Source: Streptomyces sp. NBC_01454
GTDB taxonomy: Bacteria; Actinomycetota; Actinomycetes; Streptomycetales; Streptomycetaceae
Direction of reading: 5' to 3'
Assembly: GCF_036227565.1 (NCBI RefSeq)
Contig: NZ_CP109460.1
Span: 7,626,001 to 7,690,000 of the forward strand
DNA length: 64,000 bases
The notes under the pieces are model-generated. The model worked only from the letters and a program-made list of their open reading frames with translations, was not told where the DNA came from and made no database searches. The position numbers were made by a program, and so were the translations under genes. Each line of letters starts with the position of its first letter. The stretch's first letter is position 1. Below, piece after piece: positions 31,568 through 64,000 of this stretch.

Positions 31568-31568
31568 C

Positions 31569-31793: not shown

Positions 31794-31825
31794 CCGGCCG
31801 CGTGCCGAAGGAGAGGGGACAGACC

Positions 31826-35403: not shown

Positions 35404-35768
35404 GCGCAGACCGTCCTTCCGGGTGTTCGCCTCCCGGAAACCCTCGCGACAGCGGCGATCGTAAGCCGGTCCGCGGGAGGATTCGTCGGCATTCCTGGCA
35501 AATAAAGGTGTATACAGAGGGACGCGTGACGCGAGCGGACCGTTCTTTTGTGCGCCGTGAAATACGTCACCGGCGCGCGGCAAGCGGCGCGGCGGCACGG
35601 CGCGCGGTGATGCCGCCGGCACCGCGTGGGCGACCTCGGTGTGATGGACACAACAGAAGGGGCGCCCAGGTCGGGCGCAACCTGCGGGTCCTCCCGATTG
35701 TCACACCCACAGTCACAGGAATTCAGGCCTGCGTCGTGAGGCCGACCTCTTCTAGGAGTAACCCCGCC
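35404..35768. other. Divergent intergenic region (365 bp)
   Basis: It lies between the VanZ gene and the GT2/CDP-glycerol transferase gene. There is no gene. Local AT-rich patches include an 8-bp palindrome TGTATACA (35509-35516). The ribosome site AGGAG (35754-35758) serves the downstream gene. It is likely to contain both promoters; boxes are not assignable with confidence. Confidence 0.5.
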
Positions 35769-42250: not shown

Positions 42251-42254
42251 GTGA
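42126..42254 (+). CDS. Possible 42-codon leader ORF coupled to the P450 gene
   Basis: A GTG frame preceded by AGGGAAAGG (about 42116-42124) encodes 42 residues (begins MTVSPLCHWVNHC) and stops by overlapping the P450 GTG start as GTGA (42251-42254). The overlap and ribosome site favour translational coupling. Codon use is poor for Streptomyces (many codons end in T or A), so it may be a leader peptide or chance. A RiPP precursor is conceivable because a P450 follows, but no known core pattern is visible. Low confidence. Confidence 0.25.
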   Translation: MTVSPLCHWVNHCSGAHDRLPVPCTTSGEERILPGPLSRENR

Positions 42255-43459
42255 CCAGCAACGAACTGATACAGGCCCCCTTCGCCTTCGACGAGCTCGT
42301 CGAAGGGTGGCGCACCGCGCGGCAGGCCGGGCCCGTCCGCTACGACGAGCAGCAGAAGTTATGGCAGGTGCTCGACCACGAGAGCGTGGCCGCGGTGCTC
42401 GCCGACCCGGCCTCGTACTCCTCGGACTTCTCCGGACTGGCCCCCACCCAGGCGGACTTCGAGACCTTCCGCCAGGGCAACTTCGTCGGCATGGACCCGC
42501 CGGCGCACCGCAAGCTGCGCACCCTGGTCAGCCAGGCCTTCACCCCGCGCGTCGTGGCCGCACTCGAACCGCGGATCCACGCCATCACCACGGAGCTGCT
42601 CGACGCTGTCGAGGACCGCGACCGCTTCGACATGGTCGACGCGCTGGCCTACCCGCTGCCCATCATCGTCATCGCCGAACTGCTGGGCATCCCGGCCGGC
42701 GACCGGGCGTTGTTCCAGGAGTGGGCGGCCACCCTCTTCGGCGGGGACGAGATCGGCGACTCGCTGGACATGGCCGACATCGAGCGCGCGCTGGAGTCCA
42801 TCGCGCCCACCGTGCGCGAAATGAACGGCTACATCCTCGACCACATCCGCCACCACCGGAAGCACCCGGGCGAGGGGCTCACCAGCAAGCTGGTGCAGGC
42901 CGAGGTGGACGGCATGCGCCTGGAGGACCAGGAGATCGTCGGCTTTGTGGCGCTGCTGCTGGTCGCCGGGCACATCACCACCACCGCCCTGCTGGGCAAC
43001 GCCGTGCTCAGCCTCGACCAGTACCCCGACGAGGCCGCGCTGCTGCGTGCCGAGCCCGGCCGGCTGCCGGACACCCTCGAAGAGGTGCTGCGCTGGCTGC
43101 CGCCCTTCCCCGAGCTCGGACGCCGCACCACCCGTGAGGTCGAGCTCGGGGGGCGGACCATTCCCGCCGAGTCGGTGGTGATGGCCAACCTGGCCGCCGC
43201 CAACCGCGATCCGTCCCGGTTCGCCCACCCCGACGACTTCGACGTGACCCGCAGCCCCAACCCCCACCTGACCTTCGGCCACGGCATCCACTTCTGCTTC
43301 GGTGCCCCGCTGGCCAGGCTGGAGGCCCGGATCGCGCTCCGACTGGTGCTGGAACGTTTCCCTGATATCGCCGTGGCCCGTCGCAGCGAGGTCGAGATCC
43401 AGAATCCCGCCGTCATCGTCAGCGTGCGCCGACTGCCGCTGGAGGTACGGAGGTCCTAG
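42251..43459 (+). CDS. Cytochrome P450 (CYP107-like)
   Basis: 402 residues. The I-helix motif is LLVAGHITTTALLGN (about 236-250), with the pattern common in Streptomyces CYP107-type enzymes. The K-helix ExxR is in LEEVLRWLPP and the heme loop is FGHGIHFCFGAPLARLEA (Cys about residue 346). GTG 42251 has AGGGAGA about six bases upstream and matches the family start; ATG 42194 would add an unrelated leader. It is the first gene of the NRPS cluster, transcribed in the same direction 182 bp before the serine hydrolase. It probably oxidises an amino acid, a carrier-bound residue or the finished peptide. Confidence 0.92.
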   Translation: MTSNELIQAPFAFDELVEGWRTARQAGPVRYDEQQKLWQVLDHESVAAVLADPASYSSDFSGLAPTQADFETFRQGNFVGMDPPAHRKLRTLVSQAFTPRVVAALEPRIHAITTELLDAVEDRDRFDMVDALAYPLPIIVIAELLGIPAGDRALFQEWAATLFGGDEIGDSLDMADIERALESIAPTVREMNGYILDHIRHHRKHPGEGLTSKLVQAEVDGMRLEDQEIVGFVALLLVAGHITTTALLGNAVLSLDQYPDEAALLRAEPGRLPDTLEEVLRWLPPFPELGRRTTREVELGGRTIPAESVVMANLAAANRDPSRFAHPDDFDVTRSPNPHLTFGHGIHFCFGAPLARLEARIALRLVLERFPDIAVARRSEVEIQNPAVIVSVRRLPLEVRRS

Positions 43460-43641: not shown

Positions 43642-44994
43642 ATGCCGTATGTCACGAGCGCTCCGGTCGCAAGCCGGCAGCAGACGCAGATACGTCCCCG
43701 CTTACAAGAGCGCCTGCACACGCTCGCCCGCGCCCATCAGGTGCCCGGGGCCCAACTCGCCGTCCACACCGACGGGGTCACGTACACCGTCCACACCGGC
43801 GAGGCGGACGTCTCCACGGGCCGGCCGTTCACCACGGACACCGCGGTCCCGCTGGGCTCCGTCACCAAGTGCGCCACCGCCGCGGTGGTCATGCTGCTCG
43901 CCGCCGACGGCGACCTCGCGCTGACCGACCGGGTCGCCACGTACGTGCCGGAGCTGCGGGCCTCGCAGGCGACCGTGCGTCAGCTGCTCAGCCACACCGC
44001 CGGACTCCCCACCGGGCCCGACTCGGACGACGTGACGACGCTGACGCCGTCGCGCTATCTGTCCGCGCACTGCGCCGAACGGGACACCGTCTGCGCGCCC
44101 GGGACCGGCTTCTCGTACTCCAACGCCGGGTTCATAGCCGCCGGCCGGCTGATCGAATCGGTGACGGGCATGACCTGGCAGGAAGCGGTGCGCGCCTTCC
44201 TGCTCGAACCCCTGGGCACCGCTCCCGCCTTCCTCGGCGACCCCGCGCCGGCCCGACCGGTGGCGAGCGGCCACTCCGCCAACGCGCTCTCGGGCCGGGT
44301 GCGCCCGGTGCAGCAGACCCTGGCGCCGGTGGAGGCCCCCGCGGGCGCCCTGCTGGCCAGCGCGTTCGACCTGGTCGCCCTGGGCCGGGACTTGATCGGG
44401 CACGGTCCCCGCGCGGTGCTGCCGCACGACGCCGCAGAGGAGATGCGCCGCCCGGTTCCCGGCGCCGTCCCGGGAGTTCTGGCGGACGCCTGGGGACTGG
44501 GCCTCGCCCTCTTCCAGCAGGGCACCGCACAGTGGTGCGGCCATGACGGCAACGCCCAGGGCACCTCCTGCCATCTGCGGGCCGAACCCGAGAGCGGCAC
44601 CGTGGTCGCCTTCACCAGCAACGCCAACAGCGGCACCGCCCTGTGGCACGCACTCGCCGACGACCTCGCCGAGATCACCGGCGTCGGCGTGCCCGCGGCA
44701 CCGCGCCCGCGGGAGGCCGGCCGTCCCCTCGCACTTCCCCAGTGCGCCGGGACCTATCACAACGGCACCGTCGAGTACCGCGTCACGGCCGACGCGGCGG
44801 GCTCCCTGGCGCTGTCCGTGAACGGCGACACCCCGGCGCCGCTCGTCTGCTACGCGGATCTGAGCTGCGATCTGGTGGACCCCGCGAACGGCCGCCGGGT
44901 CCCCGGCGGAAGCTTCGTCCGGGATCCGGACACCGGCGCGATCGACCGGCTGCAGATCTCCGGGCGCACCGCCCGCCGTACCGGCACCGCCTGA
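43642..44994 (+). CDS. Beta-lactamase-fold serine hydrolase, probable PBP-type (SurE-like) thioesterase
   Basis: 450 residues, no signal peptide, so cytoplasmic, unlike a secreted beta-lactamase or PBP. The catalytic set is SVTK (Ser73, Lys76), YSN (Tyr159, Asn161) and GHDGN (His301). A C-terminal lipocalin-like beta domain (about 355-445; [14 protein letters not shown]) follows. Length, domain order, spacing of the three motifs and position directly before an NRPS match my recollection of SurE-type stand-alone thioesterases, which cyclise or release NRPS products carrying a C-terminal D-residue. It lies 147 bp before the NRPS start. It could otherwise be a D-amino peptidase or esterase; the test is whether the downstream NRPS lacks its own TE. 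Confidence 0.8.
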
Positions 44995-45140: not shown

Positions 45141-48100
45141 ATGACGGACCCGCACGAGAACTCCGCACCCGCGTCCGCATCGGCGCAGACCCGGACCGCA
45201 TCGCCGGTCCGCGGGTCCGGCGGCGTCCGTCCGGTGCCCCCGTGCTCGCTCGGTGACCTCTTCGCCGCATGGGTGGCGCGCACCCCGGAGGCGCCCGCCG
45301 TCACGGACGGGCGGCGGACCTGGTCCTACCGCGCACTCGACACCTGGGCCAACCGCCTCGCGCACCACCTCATCGGACGCGGGGTGGGGCCCGAGCGTAC
45401 GGTGGCGCTGGTGCTGCCCCGCTCGGTCGAACTGATCGTGGCGGAACTGGCCGTGGCCAAGGCCGGCGGCGCGTTCCTGCCCGTCGACCCGGCCTACCCC
45501 GCCGAACGCCGGACGTTGATGCTCGCCGACGCCGATCCGGCCGTGGTCCTCGACGACGTGGCCGGCACCCGGCCCGCCGGCGGTCCCGAGCACACTCCGC
45601 AGGACGCGGACCGGTGCGCGCCGCTGCACACCGGGCACCCGGCGTACGTCATCTACACCTCGGGGTCGACCGGCGTCCCCAAGGGAGTGACGGTCACCCA
45701 CACGGGGCTGGCCGGCTTCGCGGTGGCGGCGGCCGACCGCTACGCCGTCGAACCCGGGGACCGCGTCCTGCAGTTCTCCTCCCCGAGCTTCGACGCCGCC
45801 GTCCTGGAACTGTGCGTCTCCCTGCTGTCCGGCGCCACCCTCGTGGTGCCGCCGGACGGCCCGTGGCTGGGCGACGAACTCACCGACGTCCTGACCGCGC
45901 ACCGCATCACCCACGCCCTCATCCCGCCCGCCGCGCTCGCCACGCTGCCCGCCCCGGCCGGCGACCGCGGCCTGCCCGACCTGCGGACCCTGATCGTGGG
46001 GGCCGAGGCCTGCCCGGCCGACCTGGTCGACCGCTGGGCCGCCGGCCGCCGGATGGTCAACTCCTACGGGCCCACCGAGGCCACGGTGGTCGCCTCCTGG
46101 ACCGGGCCCCTGGCCGTCGGCGGCGGTACCCCGACGATCGGCGGGCCGCTGCCCCACACCCGGCTGCGGGTGCTCGACGCGGCGATGCGGCCGGCGGCGG
46201 CGGGCACCAGCGGTGAGCTGTACGTGGGCGGCGACGGGGTGGCCCGCGGCTACCTCAACCGTCCGGGCCTGACCGCCGCGCGCTTCGTGGCCGACCCGTA
46301 CGGACCGCCCGGCAGCAGGCTCTACCGCACCGGGGACCTGGCGCGCTGGAACGCCGACGGTGAGCTGGAGTTCCTCGGGCGGCTCGACCGGCAGGTCAAG
46401 ATCCGCGGCTTCCGGGTCGAACTCGGTGAGATCGAGGCGGTGTTGGCGGACCACGCCGACGTCGGTGAAGCGGTGGTCCTGGTGCGTGAGGACGAGCCCG
46501 GACGGCAGCGGCTCGTCGCCTATGTGACACCGGCGGACACCGGCCGGCCGCCGCAGCCCGCCCCGCAGCCCGCCCCGCTGCGCGCGGCGGTCTCCCGCAT
46601 CCTGCCGGCGCACATGGTGCCGTCCGCCGTCGTGGTCCTGGAAGCGTTCCCGCTCACCGCCCACCACAAGATCGACCGGAAGGCCCTCCCTGCGCCCGGC
46701 CCGGAGCGCACCGCGAGCCACCTCGCGCCCCGGACCGACGCCGAGCGGACCGTGGCCGGCATCTGGTCCGACGTGCTGGACGTGCACCCCGTCGGCGCCG
46801 AGGACGACTTCTTCGCGCTCGGCGGCGACTCCGTCCTCGCCGTGCGGGTCCTCTCCCGGATCCGCGAGGAGCGGGGGGTCCGGCTGACCGTCCGGGACCT
46901 GTTCACCGCCCGGACGGTCGCCGACGTGGCCGCACTGCTCGACGGGGCGGCCGCCACGGACCCCGCGACGCCGATCCCGCCGGCCCCGCGCGAGCACCCG
47001 CTGCCGCTCTCCGCCGCCCAGCAGCGGCTGTGGTTCCTCGACGACCTCACCGCCGGCTCCACCGAGTACAACACCGGCGTCGGGGTGCGGCTGCGCGGCC
47101 GGCTGGACCATGCCGCGCTCGGCCGTGCCCTGGACCGGCTCGCCGCCCGCCACGACGCCCTGCGCACCACCTTCACCACGGTCGACGGACGCGGCGTGCA
47201 GCGGATCGACGACACCGCCGCGCTGCCGCTGCGCACCGCCGACCTGCGCCCCGTGCCGGCCGACCGGCGCGAGGCGGAGGCCGAGTGCCTGCTGACCGAG
47301 GAGCTGGAGCGCCGCTTCGACCTGGGCGAGGGCCCGCTGACCCGCGCGCTGCTGGTCCGGCTCGCCGACGACGAGCAGCTGCTGCTGCTGGCCCAGCACC
47401 ACCTCGTCACCGACGGCTGGTCGGTCGGCATCCTGGTGCGGGAACTGGCCGCGCTGTACGCCGCCGAGGCCACCGGGGAACCGGATGGACTGCCGCAACC
47501 GGCCCTGCAGTACCCGGACTTCGCCGTGTGGGAGCGCGGGTGTCCGGCGCCGTCCCGGCACGCCGAGGACCTCGCGTACTGGAAGCGGCATCTGTCCGGG
47601 ACCCCGCAGCTGGACCTGCCCACGGACCGGCCGCGGCCGCCGGTGCGCACCACGGCCGGCGCGGCGCACCGCCACGAGCTGCCCGCGGACCTGGTGGCGC
47701 GGCTCGGCAGACTCGCCCGCGCCAAGGGCACCACCCCCTTCACCCTGTTCTCCGGTGCGGCCGCGGTGCTGTTCTCCCGCTACACCGGCCAGCGGGACAT
47801 CGCGTTCGGCACCGTCACCAACGGACGCCACCGCCGCGAACTCGAGGACGTGACGGGCTTCTTCGTCAACACCGTGGTCCTGCGGAGCGATGTCGACGGC
47901 ACGGTGACCGTCGACCGGTTCCTGGACACGATGCGGGCGACGCTGATGGACGCCTTCAGCCATGACGGCGTGCCGTTCGCCCGGGTCGTCGAGGAGCTGG
48001 CCCCGCCGCGGGACCCCAGCCGCACGCCGCTGGTGCAGGTCCTGGTCGTCCAGCAGACCGCCATGGTGCACCCGCAGGAGACCGGCGGCGTGCGGATCGA

Positions 48101-51100
48101 GGAGCATCCGCTGCCGCGTCCGGCCGCACGGTTCGACCTCGTGCTGGAGTTCCTGCCGCGCGGCGACGGCTCCTTCGGGCTGACCGTCGAGTACAACACC
48201 GACCTGTTCGACGCCGCGACCGTGACCCGGATGAGCCGGCATCTGCACCTCCTGCTGGAGGGCATGGCGGACGGCCCGCACCGGACCGTGGCCGAACTGC
48301 CGCTGCTGACCGAGGACGAGCGGCGCACCATCCTCGACGCCTGGAACGCGCCGCAGCAGGAGGAGGCCGCCCCGACGACGCTGCCCGCACTCTTCGAGGC
48401 GCAGACCCTCCGTACGCCCGACCGGACCGCCGTGGTCTGCGGCGGCACGGAGCTCACCTATGACGAGGTCAACCGCCGGGCCAACCGGCTGGCCCGGCTG
48501 CTGACCGGCCGCGGGGTGGGCCCGGAGTCCCTGGTGGCGCTGGCGCTGCCGCGCTCGGCCGACCTGGTCGCCGTCCTCTGGGCGGTGCTCAAGGCGGGCG
48601 CCGGATATCTGCCGGTGGATCCCGGCTATCCGGCCGAGCGCATCCGGTTCATGCTGGCCGACGCCGCACCGGCCACCGTCCTGACCACGCGTGACACGGC
48701 CGGCTGCCTGCCCGAGGGCACCGAGCGGCTGGTGCTGGACGACCCGGCGACCCTGGCGGCGCTGCCCGGCCACCCGGAGCACGATCTGACCGACGCCGAA
48801 CGGGCGCGGCCGCTCGATCCCCGTCACCCGGCCTATGTCATCTACACGTCGGGCTCGACGGGCCGGCCCAAGGGCGTGGTCGTCTCGCACGCCAGCGTGG
48901 CCGACCTGGCGGTGTGGGCGGGGGAGCAGTTCGGGCGGCAGCGGCTGACCCATGTGGTGGCCTCCACCTCACTCAACTTCGATGTGTCCGTCTTCGAGCT
49001 GCTGTGCCCGCTGCTGTCCGGCGGCAGCATCGAGGTGGTGGCCGATCTGCCGGCCCTCGCCGACCGGGCGGGCAGCGCCCCGCGGCGGGCCGGCCTCATC
49101 AGCGGGGTGCCGTCGGTGGTGTCCCGGATGCTCACCACGGATGCCGCACCCGTCCAGGCCGACACGGTGGTGCTGGCGGGCGAGGCACTGCCCGCGCAGA
49201 CCGTGCGCGACATCCGCCGCACCATGCCGTCCTCCCAGGTCGCCAACATCTACGGGCCGACCGAGGCCACCGTGTACGCCACCGCGTGGTTCTCCGGCGA
49301 CGGCACCCCCGAGCAGGCCCCGCCGATCGGCCGGCCCGTCGCCCGGACCCGCGCCTACGTCCTGGACGGCATGCTGCGGCCTCAACCGCCGGGCGTGACA
49401 GGTGAGTTGTACCTCGGCGGCGGCGGTCTGGCCCGGGGCTACCTCCGGCGGCCCGGTCTGACCGCCACCCGGTTCGTCGCTGACCCCTTCGCCGGGCCGG
49501 GCAGCCGGATGTACCGCACCGGCGACCTGGTGCGGTGGACCGCCCAGGGCGAGCTGGAGTACGTCGGCCGGGCCGACCAGCAGGTCAAGGTGCGCGGCTT
49601 CCGCATCGAGCTGGGAGAGGTCGAGGAGGCGCTGGTGCGCTGTGCGGGGGTGGCCCAGGCGGCCGCCGCCACCCGGGAGAGCGACGGCCACAAGCGCCTG
49701 ATCGGCTATGTGGTGCCGGCTCCCGGGGCGGAGCTGGACCCGGGCGCGCTGCGCCGGCTGCTCGGCCGCAGTGTGCCCGACTACATGGTGCCCTCGTCGG
49801 TCGTCGTCCTGCCCGCGCTGCCCCTCAACCCCAACGGCAAGCTGGACCGGGACCGGCTGCCGGCTCCCGACCGGATGGCCGCGGGCACCACGGAGTACGT
49901 GGCGCCGCGCACCGCCACCGAGCGGGCGCTGGCCGCCGTGTGGGCCGACGTCCTGCGGGTGGAGCGGGTCGGCCTGGAGGACAACTTCTTCACGCTGGGC
50001 GGCGACTCGATCCTCAGCATCCAGGTGGTGGCCCAGGCACGGCAGGCGGGCCTGGCCGTCACCTCCCGTGACGTCTACCGGCACCAGACGGTCGGCGCCC
50101 TCGCGCAGTGCGTGGACGCCGCCGGGCGCCCGGCCGCCGGCCCGGCCCCCGAGGCGACGGCCACCGGCACCGCGCCCCTGACCCCCATTCAGCACTGGCT
50201 GTTCGAGAGCGACACCGAGCGGGCCGGCCACTTCGGCCAGACGCTGTCCGTCGAGCTGTCCGACGACGTGGACGCCACGGTGCTGGACGCCGCCCTGCGC
50301 GAGGTCGTCACCCACCACGACGCGCTGCGCTCACGCTTCACGCACGACGGCGACGGCCACCGGCTCCAGCACATCGACGCCGACGCGCCCGCCGCCGTGC
50401 TGCACCACCACTCGGGCCCCGACGACGACGCACCGCACCTCGGCCCGTTCGACCTGCGCCATGGCCCCCTGCTGCGCGCCGTGCTCCACGACCGGGGTGC
50501 CGGACGGCCCCGAGTGCTGCATCTGACCGTCCACCACCTGGTGGTCGACGGCGTCTCCTGGCGCATCCTGCTGGAGGACCTGGACCGGGCCTACCGCGCA
50601 GGGCGGCGCGGCGAGCGGAGCGCCGGGCTGCCGGCGAAGTCCTCCCCGCTGCGGCACTGGGCCCGGCGGCTCACCGAGCACGCCGCCACCGGCGGCTTCC
50701 AGGACGAGACGGCGTACTGGACCGCGCTGGCCCGCTCCTGCGACCCGGAGCTGCCCACCGACCTCGACGGCGCCAACACCTATGCGTCGGCCCGCTCGGT
50801 GACCGTGCGCCTCACCCCGCAGGACACCGCCGTCCTGCTGCACACCCTGCCCGGCGCCTACCGCACCCAGGTCAACGACGTGCTGTTGAGCGCGCTGGGC
50901 CGGGTGCTGCACGCGTGGACCGGCCAGGACCGGGTCCCGGTGGACCTGGAGGGCCACGGCCGCGAGGAACTCTTCCCCGACGTGGACCTCAGCCGCACGG
51001 TCGGCTGGTTCACCACCCGCTACCCCGTCGCCCTGACCGTGGCACCGGACGCGGACTGGGGCACCGTGCTCAAGTCGGTCAAGGAGCAGCTGCGGGCCGT

Positions 51101-54100
51101 GCCGCGCCGTGGTCTGGGCTACGGCGTCCAGCGCCATCTGCTCCGGCCGGAGGGCCTGCCGGACACCCCCAGTGCCGGCATCAGCTTCAACTACCTCGGC
51201 CAGTTCGGCCTGCCCGGCGGCGACGGCGGGCTCTACCGCGGCCCGCACCGCGCACTGTCGCTGGACGCCGACCCGTCGGCGGCGCGCCCGCACGCGCTGG
51301 AGGTCGTCGGCCGGCTCGACGGCGACGCGCTGGAGTTCACCTGGTTCTACTCGGCGCACCTCCACCACGAGGCGACCGTCACCGCGCTGGCCGGGGAATT
51401 CGCCACGGCGCTGGGCGACATCGCCCGGCACGGCGCCCGGCCGGGAGCCGGCGGGCGCACCCCGTCCGACTTCCCGCTGGCCGCGCTCGACCAGCCGGCC
51501 GTGGACCGGCTGGTGGGCGAGGACGCCGCCGCCGTCGAGGACATCCACCCGCTCACCCCCACCCAGTCCGGCATGCTCTTCCACGGGCTGTCGCAGGACG
51601 ACCGACGCGTCTACTTCCAGCAGCTGACCTTCGTGCTGGACGGCGTGCCCGACCCCCGGGCCCTCGCCGCGGCCTGGCAGCGGGTGACCGACCGCACCCC
51701 GGTGCTGCGCGGCCGGGTGGTGTGGCAGGACGTGCCCGAGCCGCTGCTCGTGGTCGAGCGCGACGCCGCCGTGCCGGTCACCCACCTGGACTGGCGCGCC
51801 CTGCCGGACGAGGAGCGCCGCGCGCGGCTGCGGGAGCTGCTCGACGGCGACCGGCGGCGCGGGATCGACCTGGAGACCGCCCCCCTCCAGCGGCTGGCCC
51901 TGGCCCGGCTGTCGGACACCGAGGTACAGGTGGTGTGGTCCTTCCACCATCTGGTGCTCGACGGCTGGAGCCTGTTCCAGGTGCTGTCCGACGTCTTCCG
52001 CTGCCATGCGCTGCCGGCCGGCGCGGACACTGCGGGGGCCGGGACGGCCCTGCCCGTCCGCCGCCCCTTCCGCGACTATGTGGCCTGGCTGCGCGACCGC
52101 GACTGGGCGGAGGCCGAACGGCACTGGCGGGACCGGCTCGACGGCCTGACCGAGCCCACCGCACTGCCCTACGACCGCGAGCCCAGAGAGACCCACCGCG
52201 CCGAGTCCACCGCGGCGGTGCGCCGCACCCTGTCCGCCGGCACCACCCGCGCACTGGAGGAGCTGGCCAAGAGCGCCGGGCTGACCGTGAACACCGTGGT
52301 GCAGGGCGCCTGGGCGCTGCTGCTGGCCCGCCAGACGGGCCGCCGCGAGGTCGTCTTCGGCACCACCGTCTCCGGACGGCCGCCCGAGCTGCCCGGCGTC
52401 GAGGCGATGAACGGCCTGTTCATCGCGACCGTGCCGACCCGGCTGACCGTGCCCCGCGACGGCACCCTGCGGGACTGGCTGCGCGGCGTGCAGGAGATCC
52501 AGACCGACGACCGGCGCTTCGACTTCGTCCCGCTCACCCGGCTGACGGCGTTCAGCGAACTGCCCGAGCGGGTCGCCCTGTTCGACAGCATCGTGGTCTT
52601 CGAGAACTACCCGGTCGGCGGCGACCTCGCCGCCGCGCACGGCCTGCGGCTGAGCGGCCTCGACGGCATCGAGACCACCAACTACCCGCTGAGCCTGGTC
52701 GCCTACCCGGGCGCGGAGCTGGCGCTGCGGCTGGGCTACGACCCGGAGCTGTTCGACGCCGCCACCGTCGAGCGGATGGGGGAGTACCTCACGGTGCTGC
52801 TGGAGGGCATGGCCGCCGACGCCGGGCGCCCGCCCGCGCGGCTGCCGGTGCTCGGCGCGGCACACCGCCGCCAGGTCGTCGAGGAGTGGAACGACACCGC
52901 CGCCGCACTGCCCGAGGGCACGGTGGCCGAGCTGTTCGCCGACCAGGTCCGGCGCACCCCCGACGCCATGGCGCTGGACGCCGGAGAGCTGACCCTGACC
53001 TACCGTCAACTGGAGGACAAGGCCGATGCGTTGGCCCGTCGGCTGCACGGTCTCGGCATCCGGCCCGAGCGCCCGGTCGCCGTCCTCATGGACCGCTCGA
53101 CCGCGCTGGTCGTCGCCCAGCTGGCGCTCGCCAGAATCGGCGGCGTGTACGTCCCTCTGGACGGCCGCGCCCCGCGGGAGCGGCTGCGGCAGGTCCTGGA
53201 GGAGAGCGCGGCGGACCTCGTCCTGACCGACGCCTCCTGGCAGGAGAGCGCCCGGGAGGCGGCACCCGGCGGGCGCACCCTGCTCCTCACCGGTGACGGA
53301 GCGGCCGCGGTGCCGCCCGGCGCCGCGGAGACCCCCGCCGCGGCCGGCGCGCCGCTGCCCGCCGTCCACCCCGACAACGCGCTGTACCTGATGTTCACCT
53401 CCGGCTCCACCGGGCGCCCCAAGGGCGTCGCGGTGCGCCACCGGGACGTGGTCGCGCTCGCCTTCGACCGCGCCTTCGCCGCACACGACCGGGTCCTGGT
53501 GCACTCCCCGCAGGCCTTCGACGCGGCCACCTACGAACTGTGGGTGCCGCTGCTGCGCGGCGGCCGGGCGGTGCTGGCCCCGCCCGCGGAGGTGGACGCC
53601 GCCACGGTGCGCCGGGCGATCACCGAACAGGGCGTCAGCTGCCTGTGGCTGACCGCCGGACTGTTCCGCCTGCTGGCCCAGGAGGACCCCGGGTGCCTGC
53701 GCGGCGCCCGCGAGGTGTGGACCGGCGGCGAGGCCGTACCGGGCGCCGCGGTCCGCCGCCTGCTCGCCGCCTGCCCGGACCTCACCGTCGTCGACGGCTA
53801 CGGGCCCACTGAGACCACCACCTTCGCGACCCGGCGGGCCTTCCGCGCCGGCGAGACGCTGCCCGCCGCGCTGCCCATCGGGCGTCCCCTCGACAACATG
53901 CGGGTCTATGTGCTGGACGACGCGCTCCAGCCGCAGCCGCCGGGCATACCCGGAGAGCTCTATATCGCCGGGGCCGGAGTGGCCCGCGGCTACGGCGGCC
54001 GCCCCGGCGCGACCGCCGAGCGCTACCTCGCCGACCCGTTCGGCCCGGCCGGCACCCGGATGTACCGCACCGGCGACATCGTGCGCTGGGGCGCGGACGG

Positions 54101-57100
54101 CGAACTCCACTTCGTGGGGCGCGCCGACGACCAGATCAAGATCCGGGGCTTCCGCGTCGAACCGGCCGAGATCGAGGCCGCCCTCACCCGCCACGACACC
54201 GTCGCCGAAGCGGTACTGACCGTCCTCGCCGAGGGCGGCCGCAAGCGCCTGGTCGCCCACCTCGTGCCCGCCCCCGGGACGACGGTGCCGCCGGCGGCCG
54301 AGCTGCGCGCCTTCCTCGCCGAGGTGCTGCCCGACTACATGCTGCCCGCCGCGTTCGTCACCCTGGACGCGCTGCCCCTGACGCGCAACGGAAAGGTCGA
54401 CCGGCGCCGGCTGCCCGCCCCCGACTGGACGGCCGCCACCGCGGCCGTGCACCGGGCACCGCGCACCGAGGCCGAGCGGATCCTCGCCGAGATCTGGTGC
54501 GCCCTCCTCGGTATCGACCGGGTGGGCGTGGAGGACAACTTCTTCATGCTGGGCGGCGATTCGATCCTGAGCATCCAGGTCGTCTCGCGCGCCCGCCGGG
54601 CGGGCCTGACGCTCACCCCCCGGGATCTGTTCCGGCACCCCACCATCGCCGCGCTGGCCGCCGCCACCGGTGCCGCCGCCCAGGTCACCGGCACCGGCCC
54701 GGTGACCGGGGACATCGGCCTGCTGCCGATCCAGCACTGGTTCCTCGACGCCGGTCCCGAGCGCCCGGAGTTCTTCAACCAGTCCGTGGTCATCGAACTG
54801 GCCGAGGACCCCGACCCGCGGGCCCTGGAGGTGGCCCTGCACGCCCTGTGGTCGCACCACGACGCCCTGCGCGCCCGCTTCGTACAGCAGGCGGACGGCA
54901 CCTGGCACCAGCACTGCCCGGCACCGGACGCGGCGGACCCGCATCTGCTGCGGGCACACGACCTCACCGGGCTGACCGGGGACGAGTGCGACGCCGCGGT
55001 GCGGGCCGCCACCGCCGAGGCGCACGCGGGCTTCCGGCTGGCAACCGGACCGCTGCTCGCCGCCCGCCTCTTCACCGGCGCCCAGGACCGTCCGCCACGA
55101 CTGTTCCTGACGGTGCATCACCTGGTCGTCGACGGCGTCTCCTGGCGGGTGCTGCTGGAGGACCTGCAGAGCGCCTACCGGCAGGCACACGCCGGCGAAC
55201 CGGTGACCCCGCCCGCCCGGACCACCTCCATGCAGGAATGGGCCGACCGGCTGCGCGCCCACACCGAGGCCGGCGGCTTCGGCGACGAGAGCGCCCACTG
55301 GACCGCGGTGGCCGCACACTCCGCATCCGCGCTGCCCGTCGACTCCGCCGGGACCAACACCATCGCCGACCTCCGTTCGGTCACCGTCCGCCTGGACCGG
55401 CGGCGCACCGACGCCCTGTTGCAGCAGGTGCCCGGCGTCTACCGCACGCGGATCAACGATGTGCTGCTCACCGCGCTCGGCCGGGTACTGGCCGACTGGA
55501 CCGGCCGGCGCACCGTCGCCGTCGGCCTGGAGGGCCACGGCCGCGAGGACCACCTCTTCGACGACGTCGACCTGTCCCGTACGGTCGGCTGGTTCACCAC
55601 CCTGTTCCCCGTCGCCCTCGACGTCCCGGACGGCGACTGGGCCACGGCGCTGAAGTCCGTCAAGGAGCAGCTGCGCGCCGTGCCCGGCCGGGGCCTCGGG
55701 CACGGGGCGCTGCGCCACCTCGCGGGGGTCCCGGAGCTCGCCGCCGCAGCGCAGCCCCGGATCAGCTTCAACTACCTCGGCCGGTTCGACTGGTCCGCGG
55801 AGGGCGACGGCCTGATCCGCGGGGTGCGCGGCGGGCTGGACGGCGCCGCCGCGCCAGAGTCGATCCGCCCGCACCTGCTGGACGTGGTGGGCCGGGTCGA
55901 GGACCGGCAGCTGGAACTCACCTGGTACTACAGCGGTGGTGTGCACCGCGAGGAGACCGTCTCCGCCCTGGCCACGGGCATGCGCACGGCGCTGGAGGAC
56001 ATCGTCGCCCACTGCGCCGGCCCGGACGCCGGCGGCCGCACCCCCTCCGACTTCCCGCTGGCCGGCCTCGACCAGGCGGCCGTGGACCGGATCGCGGCGG
56101 ACGGGCACGCGGTCGAGGACATCTACCCGCTGACCCCGATGCAGGCGGGCATGCTGTTCCACGGCCTGATGGACCCCTCGTCCCAGGCCTACTTCAACCA
56201 GGTCCAGCTGGTGCTCTCCGGCGTCCGGGACGCCGCGGCCCTCGCCACGGCCTGGCAGCAGGCCTCCGACGCCAACCCGATGCTCCGCACCCGTCTGGTG
56301 TGGGAGGAGACCGACCGGCCGCTGCAGATCGTGCAGACCCGGGCCACCGTTCCCGTCACCCACCACGACTGGACCGGGTGGGCCCCCGACCGCTGCGCCC
56401 GCGCCCTGGAGACGCTGCTCGCCGAGGACCGGGCGGCCGGCCTCGACCTGACCCGCGCCCCGCTGATGCGGCTGAACCTGATCACCCTCTCCGCCGACCG
56501 GGTCCGCCTCGTCTGGACCTTCCACCACACCCTGCTCGACGGCTGGAGCGCGGCCCAGGTCTTCGACGAGATCTGCGAGCGGTATGCGGCCCTCACCACG
56601 GGCCGCCGCCCCGAACTCCCCGCACGTGCCCCCTTCGGCAGCTATCTGCGCTGGCTGGCGGAGCAGGACACCACACAGGCCGAGCGGCACTGGCGCACCG
56701 CTCTGGCGGGATTCACCTCACCCACCGAACTGCCCCGCGACCGGGTGCCGCTGGAGGCCCACCGCACCGCCTCGTCCGGCTCGGTCGGCATCACGCTCGG
56801 CGCCGAGGAATCCGCCCGTCTGCGGGAGACCGCGCAGCAGGCCGGGCTGACCATGAACACCGTCCTCCAGGGCGCCTGGGGCCTGCTGCTGTCCCGCTAC
56901 GGCCACAGCGACGACGTGGTCTTCGGCACCACCGTCTCCGGCCGGCCCGCCGCACTGCCGGGCGTCGAGTCCATGGTCGGCGTGTTCATCAACACCCTGC
57001 CCACCCGGGTGCGGATCGACGGACAGCGCCCCCTGCTGGAGTGGCTGCGCGCGCTGCAGACGTCCCAGTCGGAGTCCCGGCGGTTCGACTTCGTCTCGCT

Positions 57101-60100
57101 GGCCCAGCTCCAGACCTGGAGCGAACTCCCCGGCGGGACCGGCCTGTTCGACAGCATCGTGGTCTTCGAGAACTACCCCTTCGACAGCGACGGGCTCGCC
57201 CGGCACGGCCTGGGCATCCAGCAGGAACGCGACCTGGAGCCGACCAACTACGCGCTCAGCGTGGTCGTCGCCCCCGGCGAGCGCCTCACCATCACGCTCG
57301 ACTACGACCCGGCGGCCTTCGACGCCGCCACCGTCGAGCGGCTGGGGGAGTGCCTGCGCGTCCTGCTGACGGAGATGTCGGCCGACCCGGACCGTCGGCT
57401 GGCCGATCTGCCCCTGCTCACCGGGGACGAACGCGGGCGCATCCTGTCGCGGTTCGGCGGAGCGGCGCTGCGCGCGCCGCGCCGGGTGCTGCCCGCGGTC
57501 TTCGAGGAGCAGGCGGCCCGCACCCCTGACGCCCCGGCCGTCCTGGCCGGCGCGGACCGGCTGACCTACCGGGAGCTGAACGAGCGCGCCAACCGGCTGG
57601 CCCGGCTGCTGATCGACTCCGGCGCCGGCCCGGAGCGCTTCGTGGCGCTCGCGCTGCCGCGCACGGCCGACCTGATGGTGGCGCTGCTGGCGGTGCTCAA
57701 GAGCGGCGCCGGATATCTGCCGGTCGACCCCACGTACCCGGCCGAGCGGATCGCCTTCCTCTTCGACGACATCGGCCCGGACATCGTGCTCACCACCACC
57801 GCGCTGGCCGGCCGGCTGCCCGAGGGGCCCGCCACGCGCCTGGTGCTGGACGACGCCGGGACCGCGGAGCGGCTCGCGGTGCGGTCCGCCGCCGACCTCG
57901 GCGACGCCGAGCGGGCCGGTGCGCTGCTGCCCGCCCACCCCGCGTACGTCATCCACACCTCGGGGTCGACGGGCCTGCCCAAGGGCGTGGTGGTCACCCA
58001 CGGTTCGGTGGTGGCACTGGCCGACTGGGCGGCCGCCGAGTTCGGCGGCCGCGGCCTGTCCCACGTCGTGGCGTCCACCTCGCTCAACTTCGACGTGTCG
58101 GTCTTCGAGATCGTCTGCCCGCTGCTGTCCGGCGGCTGCGTCGAGCTGGTCGGTGACCTGCTCGCCCTGGCCGAACGCCGCGGCCCCTGGACCGCCGGCC
58201 TGCTCAGCGCCGTCCCCTCCGCCCTCGGCCGGCTCCTCGCCGAGGACACCGTCCGCGTCAGCGCGGACACCGTCGTGCTGGCCGGCGAGGGGCTCGCCGC
58301 CCGCACCGTGGAAGAGGTCCGCGCCGCCGTCCCCGGCTGCCGGGTCGTGAACATCTACGGCCCCACCGAGGCCACCGTCTACGCCACCGCCTGGCACTGC
58401 GACCCCGACGACCCCGGCCGCACCCCGCCGATCGGCAGCCCCGTCACCGGCGCCCGCGCCTATGTCTTCGATCCGCATCTCCAGCCGGTGCCCGTCGGGG
58501 TGCCCGGCGAGCTCTACCTCGCCGGAACGGGCGTGGCGCGCGGGTACTTCGCCCGCCCCGGCCTGACCGCCCGCCGCTTCCTCGCCGACCCGTTCGGCCC
58601 CGCGGGCGAGCGGATGTACCGCACCGGCGACCTCGTGCGCTGGGACACCGAGGGACAGCTGGAGTACCTCGGCCGCACCGACGACCAGGTCAAGGTGCGC
58701 GGCTTCCGGATCGAACTGGGCGAGGTGGAGGCCGCGCTGGCCCGCCATCCGCAGGTGGCCGAGGCGGCCGCCCGGGTGGTCGAGACCGACGGCCACAAGC
58801 GTCTGGTGGGCTATGCGGTCGGCCGCGGCGCGGGGTGCCCCGACCCCGCCGCGCTGCGGGCCTTCCTCGCGCAGAGCCTGCCCGGACACCTGGTGCCCGC
58901 GGTCATCGTCCCGCTGGAGCGGCTGCCGCTGGGCGCGACCGGCAAACTCGACCGGCGCGCCCTGCCGGCTCCCGACTGGGCGGCCCCGGCCGGCGGCCAC
59001 GTCCCGCCGCGCACGGACACCGAGAAGACGCTCGCCGGCATCTGGGCCCAGGTGCTGGGCGTGGACCGGGTGGGCGCCGAGGACAACTACTTCGCCCTGG
59101 GCGGCGATTCGATCCTCAGCATCCAGATCGTCTCCGCGGCCCGCCGCGCGGGCATCGAGCTCACCCCGCGGCATCTGTTCGTCCACCAGACCGTCGCCGC
59201 CCTGGCCGCGGCTGCCGAGGGCCTGCCGGCCGCGGTGACCGCCGCCGAACAGGGCCCCGTGGTGGGCGAGGTCCCGCTCACCCCCGTCCAGCACTGGCTG
59301 TTCGACACCGTCCCCGACAGCCCCTGGCACTTCACCCAGTCGCTGTCCTTCCACCTGGCCGCCGAGGCCGACGAGGAGGCGCTGCGCGCCGCCCTGGCCG
59401 CCGTCTGGGAACACCACGACGCCCTGCGGATGCGCTACGAGCACACCGACGACGGCCGCCAGCGCCAGGTCGGCACGGCGCCCGCCACGGCGCCCGCGCT
59501 GGAGGTGTGCGACCTGTCCCACCGGGCACCTGGGGAGCGGGCCGAGGCGCTGCGTGCGCTGGCCCGCGACCTCAACGCCGGCTTCGACCTGGCCGACGGG
59601 CCGCTGCTGAAGTCCGTGCTGTGCCGGCTCGGCGACGAGGAGCGCCCGGTGCTGCTGCTGGCGGCCCACCATCTGGTCGTCGACGCGGTGTCCTGGCGCA
59701 TCGTCCTGGAGGACCTGGACACGGCCTACCGCGCGGCGCACGCCGGCGGCCGGGCCGCACTCGGCCCCAAGACCACCTCCTTCCGCGCCTGGGCGCAGCG
59801 GCTGCACGAGCACACCGCCGCCGGCGGCTTCGACGACGAACTCCCCTACTGGAACGGGCCGCAGGGCCACGCCGAGCTGCCCACCGACGGCGAAGGGCGC
59901 AACACCGCGGACTCCGAGGACACGGTGACCGTCCGCCTGGAGGCCGAGGAGACCCGCCGGCTGCTCCAGGAAGTGCCGGACACCTACCGCACCCGGGTCA
60001 ACGACGTCCTGCTGTGCGCCCTGGGCCGGGTGCTGGCCCGCTGGACCGGACACGACCGGGTGCTGATCGGGCTGGAGGGGCACGGCCGTGAGGAGATCTT

Positions 60101-63100
60101 CGACGACGTCGATCTCTCCCGTACCGTCGGCTGGTTCACCACCATGTTCCCCCTCGCCCTGGACCTGCCGCCGCAGGCCGGCCTCGCGGCGGCGCTGAAG
60201 TCCGCGAAGGAGGGGCTGCGGCGGCTGCCCCGGCACGGTCTGGGGTACGGCGCGCTGCGCCATCTGCGCACCCTGGCGGCCGACGGGCTCCCGCCCCTGC
60301 CGCAGATCGGCTTCAACTACCTCGGCCAGCAGGACTGGAGCGCCGCGGCCGGCGGTGGCCTCCTGCACGCACCGTACGGTGCCCTGGAGGGCGGCATGGA
60401 CCCGGCGGCCGGGCGGCCCCATCTGATCGATGTCGTCGGCCTGGTCGCGGACAAGCGGCTGGAGTTCACCTGGTCGTTCTCGAAGAACCTGCACCGGCGG
60501 GAGACCGTGGCCCGCCTGGCCGAGGAGATGGCCGCCGAACTGCGCGGGATCGTGCGGCACTGCGCCCGGCCGGACGCCGGCGGCCGTACCCCCTCCGACT
60601 TCCCGCTGGTCCGCCTGGACCAGGAGGGCGTCGACCGGCTCGCCGGCAACGGCCGGGACGTCACGGACATCTACCCGCTGACCCCCACCCAGACGGGCCT
60701 GGTCTTCCACGGCATGGACGAGCCCGACCAGGGGCTCTACGTGGAGCAGGCCACCTTCGTCGTGGACGGCGTGCGCGATCTGCGGCTGCTGGCCGCCGCC
60801 TGGCAGCAGGTCGTGGACCGCACTTCCGTGCTGCGCAGCGCGGTGGTGCTGCGCGAGGTGCCGGTGCCGCTCCAGACCGTGCACCGCTCCGTCACCCTGC
60901 CCGTGACGGAGCACGACTGGAGCGACCTGACACCGGACGAGCGGGACGCCGCGCTGGAGCGGCTGCTCGCCGAGGACCGGGCCCGCGGCATCGCCCTGGA
61001 CCGGGCGCCGTTGCTGCGGGTCGCCCTCATCCGGCTCGCCCCGGCCGAGGTGCGGGTGGTGTGGACCTTCCACCATGTGCTGCTCGACGGGTGGAGCGTC
61101 TTCCAGGTCCTCTCGGACGTCTTCGCCTGCCACGCGGCGCTCGCCGCGGGCACCGAGCCCCGGCTGCCGGACCGCAGGCCGTTCGCGGACTACGCCGGCT
61201 GGCTCGCCGCCCACGACACCGCCCCGGCCGAAGCGCACTGGCGCCGGGTGCTGGCGGGGCTGTCCGCCCCCACCCCGCTGCCCTACGACCGGCGCCCGGC
61301 CCAGGGCGCGGCCACCCGGGCCGGCACCTGGCACTCGCAGCGGCTCGACGCACAACGGAGCACCGCGCTGACGGACTTCGCCCGGCGCCACCACCTCACG
61401 CTCAACACCGTCGTCCAGGGGGTCTGGGGCCTGCTGCTGTCGCGCTGGAGCGGGGAGCGCGAGGTGTGCTTCGGCAGCACGGTCTCCGGCCGGCCCACGG
61501 ACCTGCCCGGCGCCGACGCCATCACCGGCCTGTTTATCAACACCCTGCCGGTGCGCGTCGACGTGGACGGCACCGCCGCCCCGGCCAACTGGCTGCGCGG
61601 CCTGCAGTCCACGCAGGCCGACGCCCGCGGCTACGACCACGTCCCGCTGTCGGACCTGCACGGCTGGAGCGAACTGGACGCCGGGACGCCGCTGTTCGAG
61701 AGCCTGGTGGTCTTCGAGAACTACCCGATCAACAACACCGCGGCCGACGCGCACGGCCTGCGCATACGCGATCTGCACGCGCTGGAGGCCACCAACTACC
61801 CGCTCACGGTGGTGATTTCGCCCGACGACGAACTCAGCGTCGAACTCGGCTACGACCCGCGGTACTTCGAGGACTCCACCGCACGCTCCCTGGCCGCGCA
61901 GCTGATGCACACCCTCGCCGCCCTCGCGGCGCCCGACGCCGCCGCGTCCGTGGACGGGATCGACGTCCTGCCGCCGGACGAGCGCGCCCGGCTCACCGGC
62001 CGTCCGGAACGGGCGGCAGCCGCCGCCGCGCCGGCCACCCTCGCCGCACTCGTCGAGGCGGCGGTGGACCGGTGGCCCGACGCGCCGGCGGTGAGCGGGC
62101 CGGCAGAGACGCTGTCCTTCGCGCAGCTGGAGGCGCGGGCCAACCGCCTGGCGCACCGACTCCTCGCCCGCGGGACGGGCCCCGGCGACCTCGTCGCCCT
62201 GGTCCTGCCGAGATCGGCCGAGATGGTCGTCGCCCAGCTCGCGACCGCCAAGGCGGGCGCCGCGTACCTGCCGGTGGACCCCGGCTACCCCGAGGAGCGG
62301 ATCGCGCTGATGCTGCGCGACGCGGCCCCGGCCGTCACCCTGGACGCCGCGGAGGTCGGCCGCCTCCTGGACGCCGGGGAGGACACCGCACCCGCCCACC
62401 GGCCCACCGACCGCGACCGCGTCCGCCCGCTCGACGTGGACGACCCGGCCTATGTGATCTACACCTCCGGTTCCACCGGCACCCCCAAGGGTGTCGTCGT
62501 CACCCACCGCGGCCTGGCGGACTTCGCCGCCGCCGAGGCCGGCCACTACCAGGTCCGCCCCGGCGACCGGGTCCTGGCCTTCGCCACCCCCAGTTTCGAC
62601 GCCTCGGTGCTGGAGCTGTGCATGTCCCTGCCGGCCGGCGCCGCCCTGGTGGTGCCCCCGCCCGGCCCGCTGCTCGGTGCACACCTGGCCGCGGTGCTGC
62701 GCGAGGAGCGCATCACCCACACCCTGCTGCCGCCCGCCGCGCTCGGCACCGTGCCGCCCGCCACCGCCGGCACCCTGCCGGACCTGCGCACGCTCATCGT
62801 CGGCGCGGACGCCTGCGGCGCCGAACTCGTCAGCCGCTGGGCCCCGCACCACCGGATGATCAACTCCTACGGCCCCACCGAGACCACGGTGGTCGCCACC
62901 TGGTCCGGCCCGCTCCGGCCCGACGGCAGCGCGCCCCCCATCGGCCGCCCGCTGCCCGCCACCGGGGTGTACGTCCTCGACGGGCGGCTGCGCCCGGTCG
63001 CCGACGGCGTCCCCGGCGAACTCTGGATCAGCGGGGCCTCGCTGGCCCGCGGCTATCTGAACCGGCCGGGCCTGACCGCCACCCGCTTCACCGCCGACCC

Positions 63101-63800
63101 GTACGGCCCGCCGGGCACCCGGATGTACCGCACCGGCGACCTGGTCCGGCGCGACGCCCGCGGCGACCTCCACCACCTCGGACGCACCGACCACCAGATC
63201 AAGCTGCGCGGCCACCGCATCGAGGCGGGCGAGGTCGAGGCCGCCCTGACCCGGCACCCGGCCGTCCTGGACGCGGTGGTGACCGTACGGGAGGACGAGC
63301 CCGGGCTGCCGCGACTGGTCGCCCATCTGCTCGCGGTACCCGGCGCCGACGTGCCGGCCGGCCCGGAGCTGCGCGCCTTCGCCGCCCGCGGCCTGCCCGG
63401 CCACATGGTGCCCTCGGCCTTCGTCGTGCTGGAGCGCTTCCCGCTCACCGAGAACGGCAAGACCGACCGCAAGGCCCTGCCCGCACCCGGGCGGGACACG
63501 GCGGAGCCGGCCGGGCACGTCGCGCCGCGCACCCCCACCGAGGAACTCCTCGCGGACATCTGGTCCACGGCCCTGGAGACGGCCGTGGGCGTCGAGGACG
63601 ACTTCTTCGCACGGGGCGGCGACTCGCTGCGCAGCCTGCTCATCGCCTCCCGGGCCAACGAGACCTTCGGGGTGGCCCTCACACCCCGCGACGTGCTGGC
63701 CTCCCGAACGGTCGCCGCCCTGGCGGACCTGGTGGAGGAACACATCCTGCGCGAACTCGAAGACGCCGTACACGGCGACAGCGACCACGACGAACGGTGA
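45141..63800 (+). CDS. Five-module nonribosomal peptide synthetase
   Basis: 6,219 residues, start ATG 45141 with GAAGGA upstream. Domains (approximate residues): A1 34-505, T1 530-595; C2 617-1057, A2 1082-1570, T2 1590-1655, E2 1680-2130; C3 2135-2580, A3 2594-3084, T3 about 3138, E3 3192-3655; C4 3660-4110, A4 4118-4610, T4 about 4654, E4 4708-5175; C5 5180-5620, A5 5633-6114, T5 about 6159. There is no starter C, formyl or TE domain. Carrier serines lie in GGDS motifs. C2 starts like an LCL domain ([13 protein letters not shown]), while C3-C5 start like DCL domains ([13 protein letters not shown]), matching the upstream E domains. Codes read by eye (235-331 plus Lys517): A1 and A5 DALLIGSVVK, A2 and A4 DVFSVAIVYK, A3 DAYWWGGTFK (valine-like). 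The predicted chain is X1-(D)X2-(D)Val-(D)X2-X1, continuing into the next NRPS. E4 reads HHLVVDA instead of HHLVVDG. Confidence 0.95.
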
Positions 63801-63811
63801 GGACCGACCCC

Positions 63812-64000
63812 ATGACGTCTTCGAAGAAGGGCCGCGCCGCGGCCCTGCCGCAGGAACTGCAGGACGCGCTGCGCCGCCGCCTGGCCGGCAAGGGCGCACC
63901 GGCGGCCACCAAGGCCCGGGACGCCATCCCGCGGGCGGACCGCTCCGAGCCGCTGCCGCTCTCCTTCGCCCAGCAGCGGCTGTGGTTCCTCGACCAGCTC
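63812..64000 (+). CDS. Start of a second NRPS (N-terminal condensation domain, cut by window)
   Basis: 63 codons are visible from ATG 63812, with GGTGAGGA upstream and an 11-bp gap after the first NRPS, so the two are in one operon. The N-terminus (LPQELQDALRRRLAGKG) is a short helical linker that may dock onto the preceding protein. It is followed by [16 protein letters not shown], the first core motif of an LCL-type condensation domain, which fits the absence of an epimerase in module 5 of the upstream enzyme. The remainder lies outside the window. Confidence 0.9.
   Translation, partial: MTSSKKGRAAALPQELQDALRRRLAGKGAPAATKARDAIPRADRSEPLPLSFAQQRLWFLDQL

What the first reader, a model, noticed from the sequence alone, without database searches (positions are those of the whole stretch)
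45141..63800. Mirror-order adenylation codes in one NRPS: X1-X2-Val-X2-X1
Extracting the specificity positions by alignment to GrsA gives the same ten-letter code for modules 1 and 5 (DALLIGSVVK) and for modules 2 and 4 (DVFSVAIVYK), around a valine-type centre (DAYWWGGTFK). Modules 2, 3 and 4 have epimerases. The predicted product segment is thus symmetric in residue identity and has three D-residues in a row. I cannot assign X1 (perhaps aromatic, by resemblance to a known Tyr code) or X2. Such symmetry suggests internal module duplication and may yield an unusual cyclic peptide.
Basis: partly seen in the sequence, partly recalled or inferred. Interest (0 to 1): 0.8.

Follow-up and report, generated by a model that had tools for sequence, protein, structure and literature searches.

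The report
Half of a ten-module peptide assembly line
The two matching pairs of amino-acid selectors are real, but they are the first half of a ten-step peptide-building machine that many Streptomyces share, and the mirror order ends where the second half begins.

Summary
The window cuts the line in half. A second NRPS gene (from 63797, about 20 kb) adds five modules and DALLIGSVVK returns in module 10, so the ten-residue order X1-X2-V-X2-X1-X3-T-X4-V-X1 is not a palindrome. The line has six E domains (L-D-D-D-L-D-L-D-L-D), no TE domain, and a stand-alone SurE/Ulm16-like cyclase gene upstream: a head-to-tail cyclic decapeptide is expected. In a draw of 199 genus genomes 20 have a close cyclase homolog; the 16 relatives whose surroundings I fetched show the same line as far as the stretches reach. 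Trees place each code set in one clade, old (61-64% identity) and older than the spread of the cluster. The 2/4 pair fits copying of an A-T-E-C unit, not of a whole module. A published line of Streptomyces sp. H-KF8 matches module for module in its text, with MS/MS assignments of Ala, Val, Trp, Orn and Tyr: X2 is probably Ala, X1 aromatic (Trp best guess), X3/X4 basic. New member of a known kind; my searches found no isolated product.

The parts
42194..43459 (+). cytochrome P450, conserved neighbour (tailoring enzyme, reaction unknown)
   Evidence: Pfam p450; homolog of 69-79% identity in 11 of 16 related loci
43642..44994 (+). stand-alone PBP-type thioesterase / peptide cyclase (SurE/Ulm16-like)
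   Evidence: Pfam PF00144; best solved relatives SurE 6ksu (249 bits) and Ulm16 8fek (207 bits); present in 16 of 16 related loci, which were fetched because of it
45141..63800 (+). NRPS gene 1: A1-T / C-A2-T-E / C-A3-T-E / C-A4-T-E / C-A5-T
   Evidence: open frame of 6219 aa; Pfam; motif scan
45261..46757 (+). A1, code DALLIGSVVK (X1); no C or E in this module
48393..49934 (+). A2, code DVFSVAIVYK (X2)
50130..51464 (+). E2 (approximate limits), motif [10 protein letters not shown]
52935..54488 (+). A3, code DAYWWGGTFK (valine type)
54684..56018 (+). E3 (approximate limits), motif [10 protein letters not shown]
57501..59036 (+). A4, code DVFSVAIVYK (X2)
59232..60566 (+). E4 (approximate limits), motif [10 protein letters not shown]
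62055..63554 (+). A5, code DALLIGSVVK (X1); no E
63797..64000 (+). start of NRPS gene 2 (LCL-type C domain); continues beyond the window for 6673 aa in all: C-A6-T-E / C-A7-T / C-A8-T-E / C-A9-T / C-A10-T-E, no TE

Best explanation
This is the first half of a two-gene, ten-module NRPS of Streptomyces that makes a head-to-tail cyclic decapeptide. Shown from sequence: module order, codes, six E domains, absence of a TE domain, a SurE/Ulm16-like cyclase gene, an MbtH gene behind gene 2, and conservation of the line. Inferred: A1 starts with a free L-X1; the chain grows as L-X1, D-X2, D-Val, D-X2, L-X1, D-X3, L-Thr, D-X4, L-Val, D-X1; the cyclase joins C-terminal D-X1 to N-terminal L-X1. Best residue guess: X1 aromatic (Trp most likely), X2 Ala, X3/X4 Orn or another basic residue. 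The matching codes come from old copying inside the line: the X2 pair fits a copied A-T-E-C unit (A2..C3 and A4..C5), modules 6-7 and 8-9 of gene 2 are a clearer two-module repeat, and X1 is one A-domain lineage in three places.
For: Gene 2 and its codes. Cyclase: best PDB hits SurE and Ulm16; a review (passages) says such cyclases stand alone and join N-terminal L to C-terminal D, as module 1 without E and module 10 with E require. Conservation: 20 of 199 genus genomes (own included) have a cyclase match of 62-100% identity, the next being 47%; 16 of the other 19 were fetched and 16 of 16 show the line as far as the stretches reach; in 10 complete lines (own included) the A3, A4 and A10 codes never vary. 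Trees (quick search, SH-aLRT): each position one clade; A1+A5+A10, A2+A4, A6+A8, A3+A9 each 100, and X1 96, X2 95 against 56 other A domains. C3+C5 99, C7+C9 98, C8+C10 96, E6+E8 99 (6 of 10 lines); T+E+next C puts 2 with 4 (96) and 6 with 8 (100). Substrates: published line of Streptomyces sp. [quoted passage not shown] X1 lies among Phe/Tyr-type codes in the trees (type labels recalled).
Against: H-KF8 is matched by its text only, not by sequence. Its paper gives Trp at 5, Tyr at 10 and nothing at 1, although here positions 1, 5 and 10 have one code; its MS assignment is of an extract and it leaves confirmation open. X2's code is also near some piperazic-acid codes. T+E alone does not group 2 with 4 (the best tree puts module 4 with 3 and 10 at 91; holding 2+4 together p-AU 0.41), so the A-T-E-C copy rests on A and C. 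C3/C5 likeness could reflect a shared donor. Outgroup sampling is thin and was chosen as best matches to A2 and A10: a domain with the same X2 code in another line (L154) is 63% identical to A2, as A4 is; X2 still excludes it with support 95 and 98.
Confidence: 0.72

Rival explanations
1. The mirror order reflects selection for a pseudo-symmetric cyclic peptide, and not chance ordering of a few repeated residues. The D/L pattern L-D-D-D-L-D-L-D-L-D has a mirror axis through residues 3 and 8, and residues 1/5, 2/4 and (loosely) 7/9 (Thr/Val) match across it.
For: E pattern is the same in the complete lines; axis through 3 and 8; codes kept over the family.
Against: Residue 6 (basic) against 10 (X1) breaks it; a random order of 6 D and 4 L has such an axis in 24% of cases, and palindromic windows arise in 7-18% of label shuffles.
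Confidence: 0.15
2. X2 is piperazic acid (or a close cyclic residue) and not alanine.
For: Some published Piz codes (HmtL-A1, PlyF-A1, ArtF-A1) share the first six letters; two A domains of S. aurantiacus that I take for its Piz domains fall in one clade with X2 (support 99) and, read with a one-residue gap, give DVFSVA(S/A)FYK.
Against: No Piz genes seen among the neighbours shared by two or more relatives; the family PF04299, to which piperazate synthase belongs (recalled), has no match in 2 of 10 carriers (G069, G096, both 100% complete), and in the own genome its one match is 0.37 Mb away; H-KF8 was assigned D-Ala at both places. The ornithine hydroxylase was not searched for.
Confidence: 0.15
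3. The equal codes were recruited separately from other NRPS lines with the same substrates, without copying inside this line.
For: A-domain identity within the X1 and X2 sets is only 61-64%; same or near codes exist in other lines (L154, L155, L184, L185); A-core swapping is the common mode of change in print (PMC8097286, passages).
Against: Each set is one clade against 56 outgroup domains, and T-E-next C of 2/4 and 6/8 go along.
Confidence: 0.2

Closest known systems
NRPS BGC #1.8 of Streptomyces sp. H-KF8 (PMC10788856)
   Same: Two NRPS genes, 10 A domains with a stand-alone first one, six E domains, a contiguous thioesterase; residue order matches position by position (two D-Ala around D-Val, D-Orn at 6 and 8, Val at 9).
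   Different: Compared by its text only (sections 4 and 5). Its positions 1 and 7 are unassigned and position 10 is given as D-Tyr, where here 1, 5 and 10 share one code and 7 is Thr type.
Surugamide, ulleungmycin, desotamide/wollamide and pentaminomycin lines with PBP-type cyclases (SurE, Ulm16, WolJ, PenA)
   Same: Stand-alone cyclase of the SurE/Ulm16 kind; first residue L and last D; here no TE domain and a terminal E.
   Different: Other residues and sizes; the cyclase is a distant relative of SurE (249 bits over 421 residues).
Tyrocidine and gramicidin S (cyclic decapeptides)
   Same: Ring of ten residues expected.
   Different: Their cyclisation is by TE domains (TycC joins N-terminal D to C-terminal L); gramicidin S is two-fold because two pentapeptides are joined, this line is not (review passages).

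Membership tests
PBP-type thioesterase (SurE family) | sequence homology to SurE/Ulm16 over most of the protein | tested here: met
   6ksu matched over residues 26-446, 8fek in three stretches; both above the other PDB chains, the next at 91 bits
PBP-type thioesterase (SurE family) | stand-alone gene beside an NRPS without TE | tested here: met
   gene 2 ends in E10
PBP-type thioesterase (SurE family) | N-terminal L and C-terminal D residue | tested here: met
   domain order only: no E in module 1, E in module 10
PBP-type thioesterase (SurE family) | conserved catalytic residues | tested here: inconclusive
   S73, K76, N161 and H301 are invariant in 11 of 11 aligned cyclases; the review lists Ser, His, Asn, Lys, but which of these columns they are was not shown
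PBP-type thioesterase (SurE family) | macrolactamisation activity | not testable with these tools
   needs purified enzyme and a decapeptide thioester
Same cluster family as H-KF8 NRPS #1.8 | 10 A domains in two genes, first A without C, six E, contiguous TE, residue pattern | tested here: met
   text of sections 4 and 5
Same cluster family as H-KF8 NRPS #1.8 | sequence homology | not tested
   I did not find or search for the H-KF8 sequence; S. prasinopilosus NRRL B-2711, which I take for a near relative, has the cyclase homolog (L092)
Piperazic-acid A domains | piperazate synthase available in every carrier | tested here: not met
   PF04299 without match in G069 and G096, matched in 8 of 10; that KtzT belongs to PF04299 is recalled
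Whole-module (C-A-T-E) duplication of modules 2 and 4 | C2 and C4 sisters | tested here: not met
   p-AU 1.5e-5; C2 falls with C6, C8, C10 and C4 with C3, C5, C7, C9
A-T-E-C unit duplication (A2..C3 / A4..C5) | A2+A4, T-E 2+4 and C3+C5 sisters | tested here: inconclusive
   A 100, A-core 98 and A-sub 95, C3+C5 99; T+E alone not grouped, not rejected, p-AU 0.41

The most novel reading that the evidence does not exclude
A cyclic decapeptide of nearly strict L/D alternation (only residue 3 breaks it), with three identical aromatic residues at 1, 5 and 10 and a mirror-symmetric D/L pattern about residues 3 and 8, is made by about a tenth of Streptomyces species and has not been isolated; such alternation favours flat, stacking rings, so it may act as a membrane or self-assembling antibiotic.
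Probability: 0.3. Interest if true: 0.6.

Novelty: new member of a known kind. Interest (0 to 1): 0.35.

Why it matters
A line whose cyclase is found in 20 of 199 sampled genus genomes, conserved nearly down to single pocket residues, has only a tentative MS-based product in the papers I could search. Named carriers listed (for example S. griseofuscus DSM 40191, L145; S. echinatus, L136; S. lucensis, L116) make product isolation direct. The three DALLIGSVVK domains and the two DVFSVAIVYK domains are a handy set for assigning two codes that no held paper's main text contains.

Tried and rejected
Literature. Full text for the two codes: 0 papers. Code stems: 34 papers, 20 listed, of which four are NRPS papers, all on piperazic-acid peptides. 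X3/X4 and further stems: 3 unrelated papers. A described cyclic decapeptide of this make-up: 256 papers, 25 listed; 9; 118, 25 listed; 10; 142, 10 listed; in these listings only the H-KF8 paper fitted. PMC12402327 (passage) lists an unnamed NRPS decapeptide cluster in S. bambergiensis, said to be shared only with S. prasinus; I could not tell whether it is this one. PMC5312570 (passages) lists two NRPS clusters of 79 and 81 kb in H-KF8. A search for mirror or palindromic NRPS work (44 papers, 12 listed) gave the recombination paper PMC8097286. Most subscription journals are not held, so a published product may exist.

Ideas dropped. Piperazic acid for X2: entertained from the code stem, set back and by H-KF8. 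A-core-only copying for 2/4: suggested by sliding identity, not upheld by trees, where the A-sub region also groups A2 with A4 at 95. Recent duplication: rejected, the DNA repeats found within gene 1 are 62-85% identical. S. echinatus genome as a source of a known Ala code: a two-module gene that I take for its echinomycin gene gave DVWHVSLVDK and DILQITLVYK; the assignment rests on recalled gene sizes, so it counts for little. P450 reaction: the nearest solved P450s are CYP107/113 types, which does not tell the reaction.

Not done: ornithine hydroxylase (KtzI) search, structure prediction, search of the large protein database, any test of X3/X4 beyond code and tree.

Full report
WHAT IS THERE. 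NRPS gene 1 runs from 45141 to 63800 and encodes 6219 residues. The window is G000:C1:7626001-7690000. Gene 2 begins at 63797, overlapping gene 1 by four bases, and has 6673 residues: C-A6-T-E, C-A7-T, C-A8-T-E, C-A9-T, C-A10-T-E, without TE. Its codes are A6 DT[L/E]DMGFVDK (the third letter depends on a gap), A7 DFWNIGMVHK (Thr type), A8 DTWNMGVVDK, A9 DAFWWGGTFK (Val type) and A10 DALLIGSVVK (substrate types recalled). X1 thus occurs three times and the palindrome holds for gene 1 only. In label shuffles a palindromic first half arises in 1.1-1.9%, a palindromic five-module window anywhere in 7-11%.

NEIGHBOURS. Upstream lie a P450 (42194-43459) and a beta-lactamase-fold protein (43642-44994). 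The latter's best solved relatives are SurE (6ksu, 249 bits) and Ulm16 (8fek, 207 bits); the next chain has 91 bits. Behind gene 2 come an MbtH gene and a GNAT acetyltransferase. Among 16 related loci, fetched for their cyclase, a P450 of 69-79% identity is found in 11, MbtH in 10 and the GNAT in 5; six of the 16 fetched stretches end before the MbtH and GNAT genes would come. A review (PMC11735501, passages) says PBP-type cyclases act alone and join an N-terminal L to a C-terminal D residue. Module 1 has no E and module 10 has one, so the line fits.

HOW WIDESPREAD. Of 199 genus genomes (own included) 20 have a cyclase match of 62% identity or more; the next is 47%. I fetched the surroundings of 16 of the other 19; the three left out (G102, G150, G163) have the match near a contig start in fragmented assemblies. 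In the 16, the first A domain has the X1 code (V or I at the eighth letter) and the second an X2 code differing from DVFSVAIVYK in at most two letters. Nine give ten A domains (in G109 A9 is partial); six are cut by the fetched length (four at nine A domains, two at four); in G180 nine of ten passed my length filter. Among ten complete lines (own included) A3, A4 and A10 codes never vary; A1 varies at one place, A2 at two, A5 at two. In a separate draw of 296 genomes of the class, most of them of other genera, an A2 match over 63% was found only in the own genome and in G465 of the same genus. In named genomes, the best 80 loci were kept of 202 relatives: Streptomyces, with one each of Streptantibioticus, Streptacidiphilus and Catenulispora and one unnamed actinobacterial MAG. 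An A domain of 250 residues or more was read in 75 of 80; of these 75 have the X1 code, 67 an X2-type code, 66 X1, X2 and the module 3 type together. The E motifs stand in the same places in the ten complete lines, except that in G164 the E2 motif (and the first T motif) was not matched by my pattern; some C motifs were missed too.

ORIGIN OF THE PAIRS. Within the line A1/A5 are 61% identical, A1/A10 64, A5/A10 63, A2/A4 62, A6/A8 63, A3/A9 57, against 43-53 for other pairs. A tree of 100 A domains from ten lines gives each position as one clade (97-100) and A1+A5+A10, A2+A4, A6+A8 and A3+A9 as clades at 100 (quick search, SH-aLRT, midpoint root). So the pairs are older than the spread of the cluster. 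With five of the lines and 56 A domains from elsewhere (best matches to A2 and A10; own copies and G465's two dropped), X1 stays one clade (96) and X2 one clade (95); with four lines and 33 others, 95 and 98. Trees of other domains use six of the ten lines. C domains split into {2,6,8,10} and {3,4,5,7,9}, as expected of LCL and DCL types; C3+C5 99, C7+C9 98, C8+C10 96; E6+E8 99, E3+E4+E10 92; T7+T9 94, T6+T8 79. C2 with C4 is rejected (p-AU 1.5e-5); E2 with E4 is not found and not rejected (p-AU 0.445). T+E+next C groups module 2 with 4 at 96 and 6 with 8 at 100; T+E alone does not group 2 with 4 (p-AU 0.408). The A-core groups A2+A4 (98) and A1+A5+A10 (99); the A-sub part groups A2+A4 (95) but leaves A1+A5+A10 open (p-AU 0.43). 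The simplest account: an A-T-E-C unit was copied (A2..C3, A4..C5); a longer stretch A6..C8 was copied to A8..C10, with the A9 core then replaced by a Val type (the A9 core groups with A3 at 99, and A7+A9 is weakly rejected, p-AU 0.037); and the X1 lineage sits in three places. Core swapping is the common mode of NRPS change in print (PMC8097286, passages).

SUBSTRATES. A paper on Streptomyces sp. H-KF8 (PMC10788856, sections 4 and 5 read, other passages seen; [quoted passage not shown] It fits position by position; the paper leaves confirmation of the product open. In my trees X1 lies within a group holding Phe- and Tyr-type codes (DAWTVAAVCK, DASTVAAVCK; labels recalled), next to DALLIGAVVK of another family. 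X2 lies beside Ser-type domains (86) and, once they are included, in one clade with two S. aurantiacus domains that I take for its piperazic-acid ones (99). X3/X4 are sisters of DAWEGGLVDK domains and carry D or N at the fourth letter, as fits basic substrates (recalled rule). Piperazic acid for X2 is unlikely because two complete carriers, G069 and G096, have no PF04299 protein; the other eight of ten have one.

VERDICT. Observation right, context missing, symmetry of the product not upheld. A widespread and little-studied cyclic decapeptide line of a known kind.

Noticed in passing
L075 (AP026074.1, plasmid SNP1 of S. nigrescens HEK616): The same cluster start lies on a 1.07-Mb plasmid in this strain, a likely route of spread.
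   Followed up: no
L214, L219 (S. aurantiacus JA 4570): Two A domains that I take for ArtG-A2 and ArtF-A1 (piperazic acid) have a motif one residue shorter (YGQSESFYAT); published codes ending YAK read it without a gap, while a gapped reading gives DVFSVA(S/A)FYK, closer to X2.
   Followed up: partly
gene 2, modules 6-7 and 8-9 (L009): A two-module repeat, clearer than the mirror pairs, with the A core of module 9 of valine type.
   Followed up: partly
L154 and L185 (G457:C2, one frame of 8281 aa): Another line holds both the X2 code DVFSVAIVYK and a near-X1 code DALLIGAVAK; possibly a sister system.
   Followed up: no
window 29911-33086: Gas vesicle genes (GvpO, two GvpL/F, Gas_vesicle).
   Followed up: no
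window 35508-38096: Glycosyltransferase joined to a CDP-glycerol glycerophosphotransferase domain (teichoic-acid type).
   Followed up: no
L010:7956-18174 and beyond: Seemingly a second, different cluster downstream: GH3 protein, methyltransferase, DUF6182, thioesterase, two KAS III-like proteins, an AMP-binding protein and an A domain with code DLTKVGEIGK.
   Followed up: no
L010:2020-6377: A second P450, an FAD aromatic-ring hydroxylase and an amidohydrolase behind the MbtH gene; of these only the P450 had (distant, 35-42%) matches in two or more related stretches, and only ten of 16 stretches reach that far.
   Followed up: partly
L082, L083, L085, L089, L095, L102-L104, L109, L123: In these 10 named loci the module 3 code is DAYFWGV(T/A)FK and not DAYWWGGTFK, so the central residue may differ in a sub-group.
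   Followed up: no
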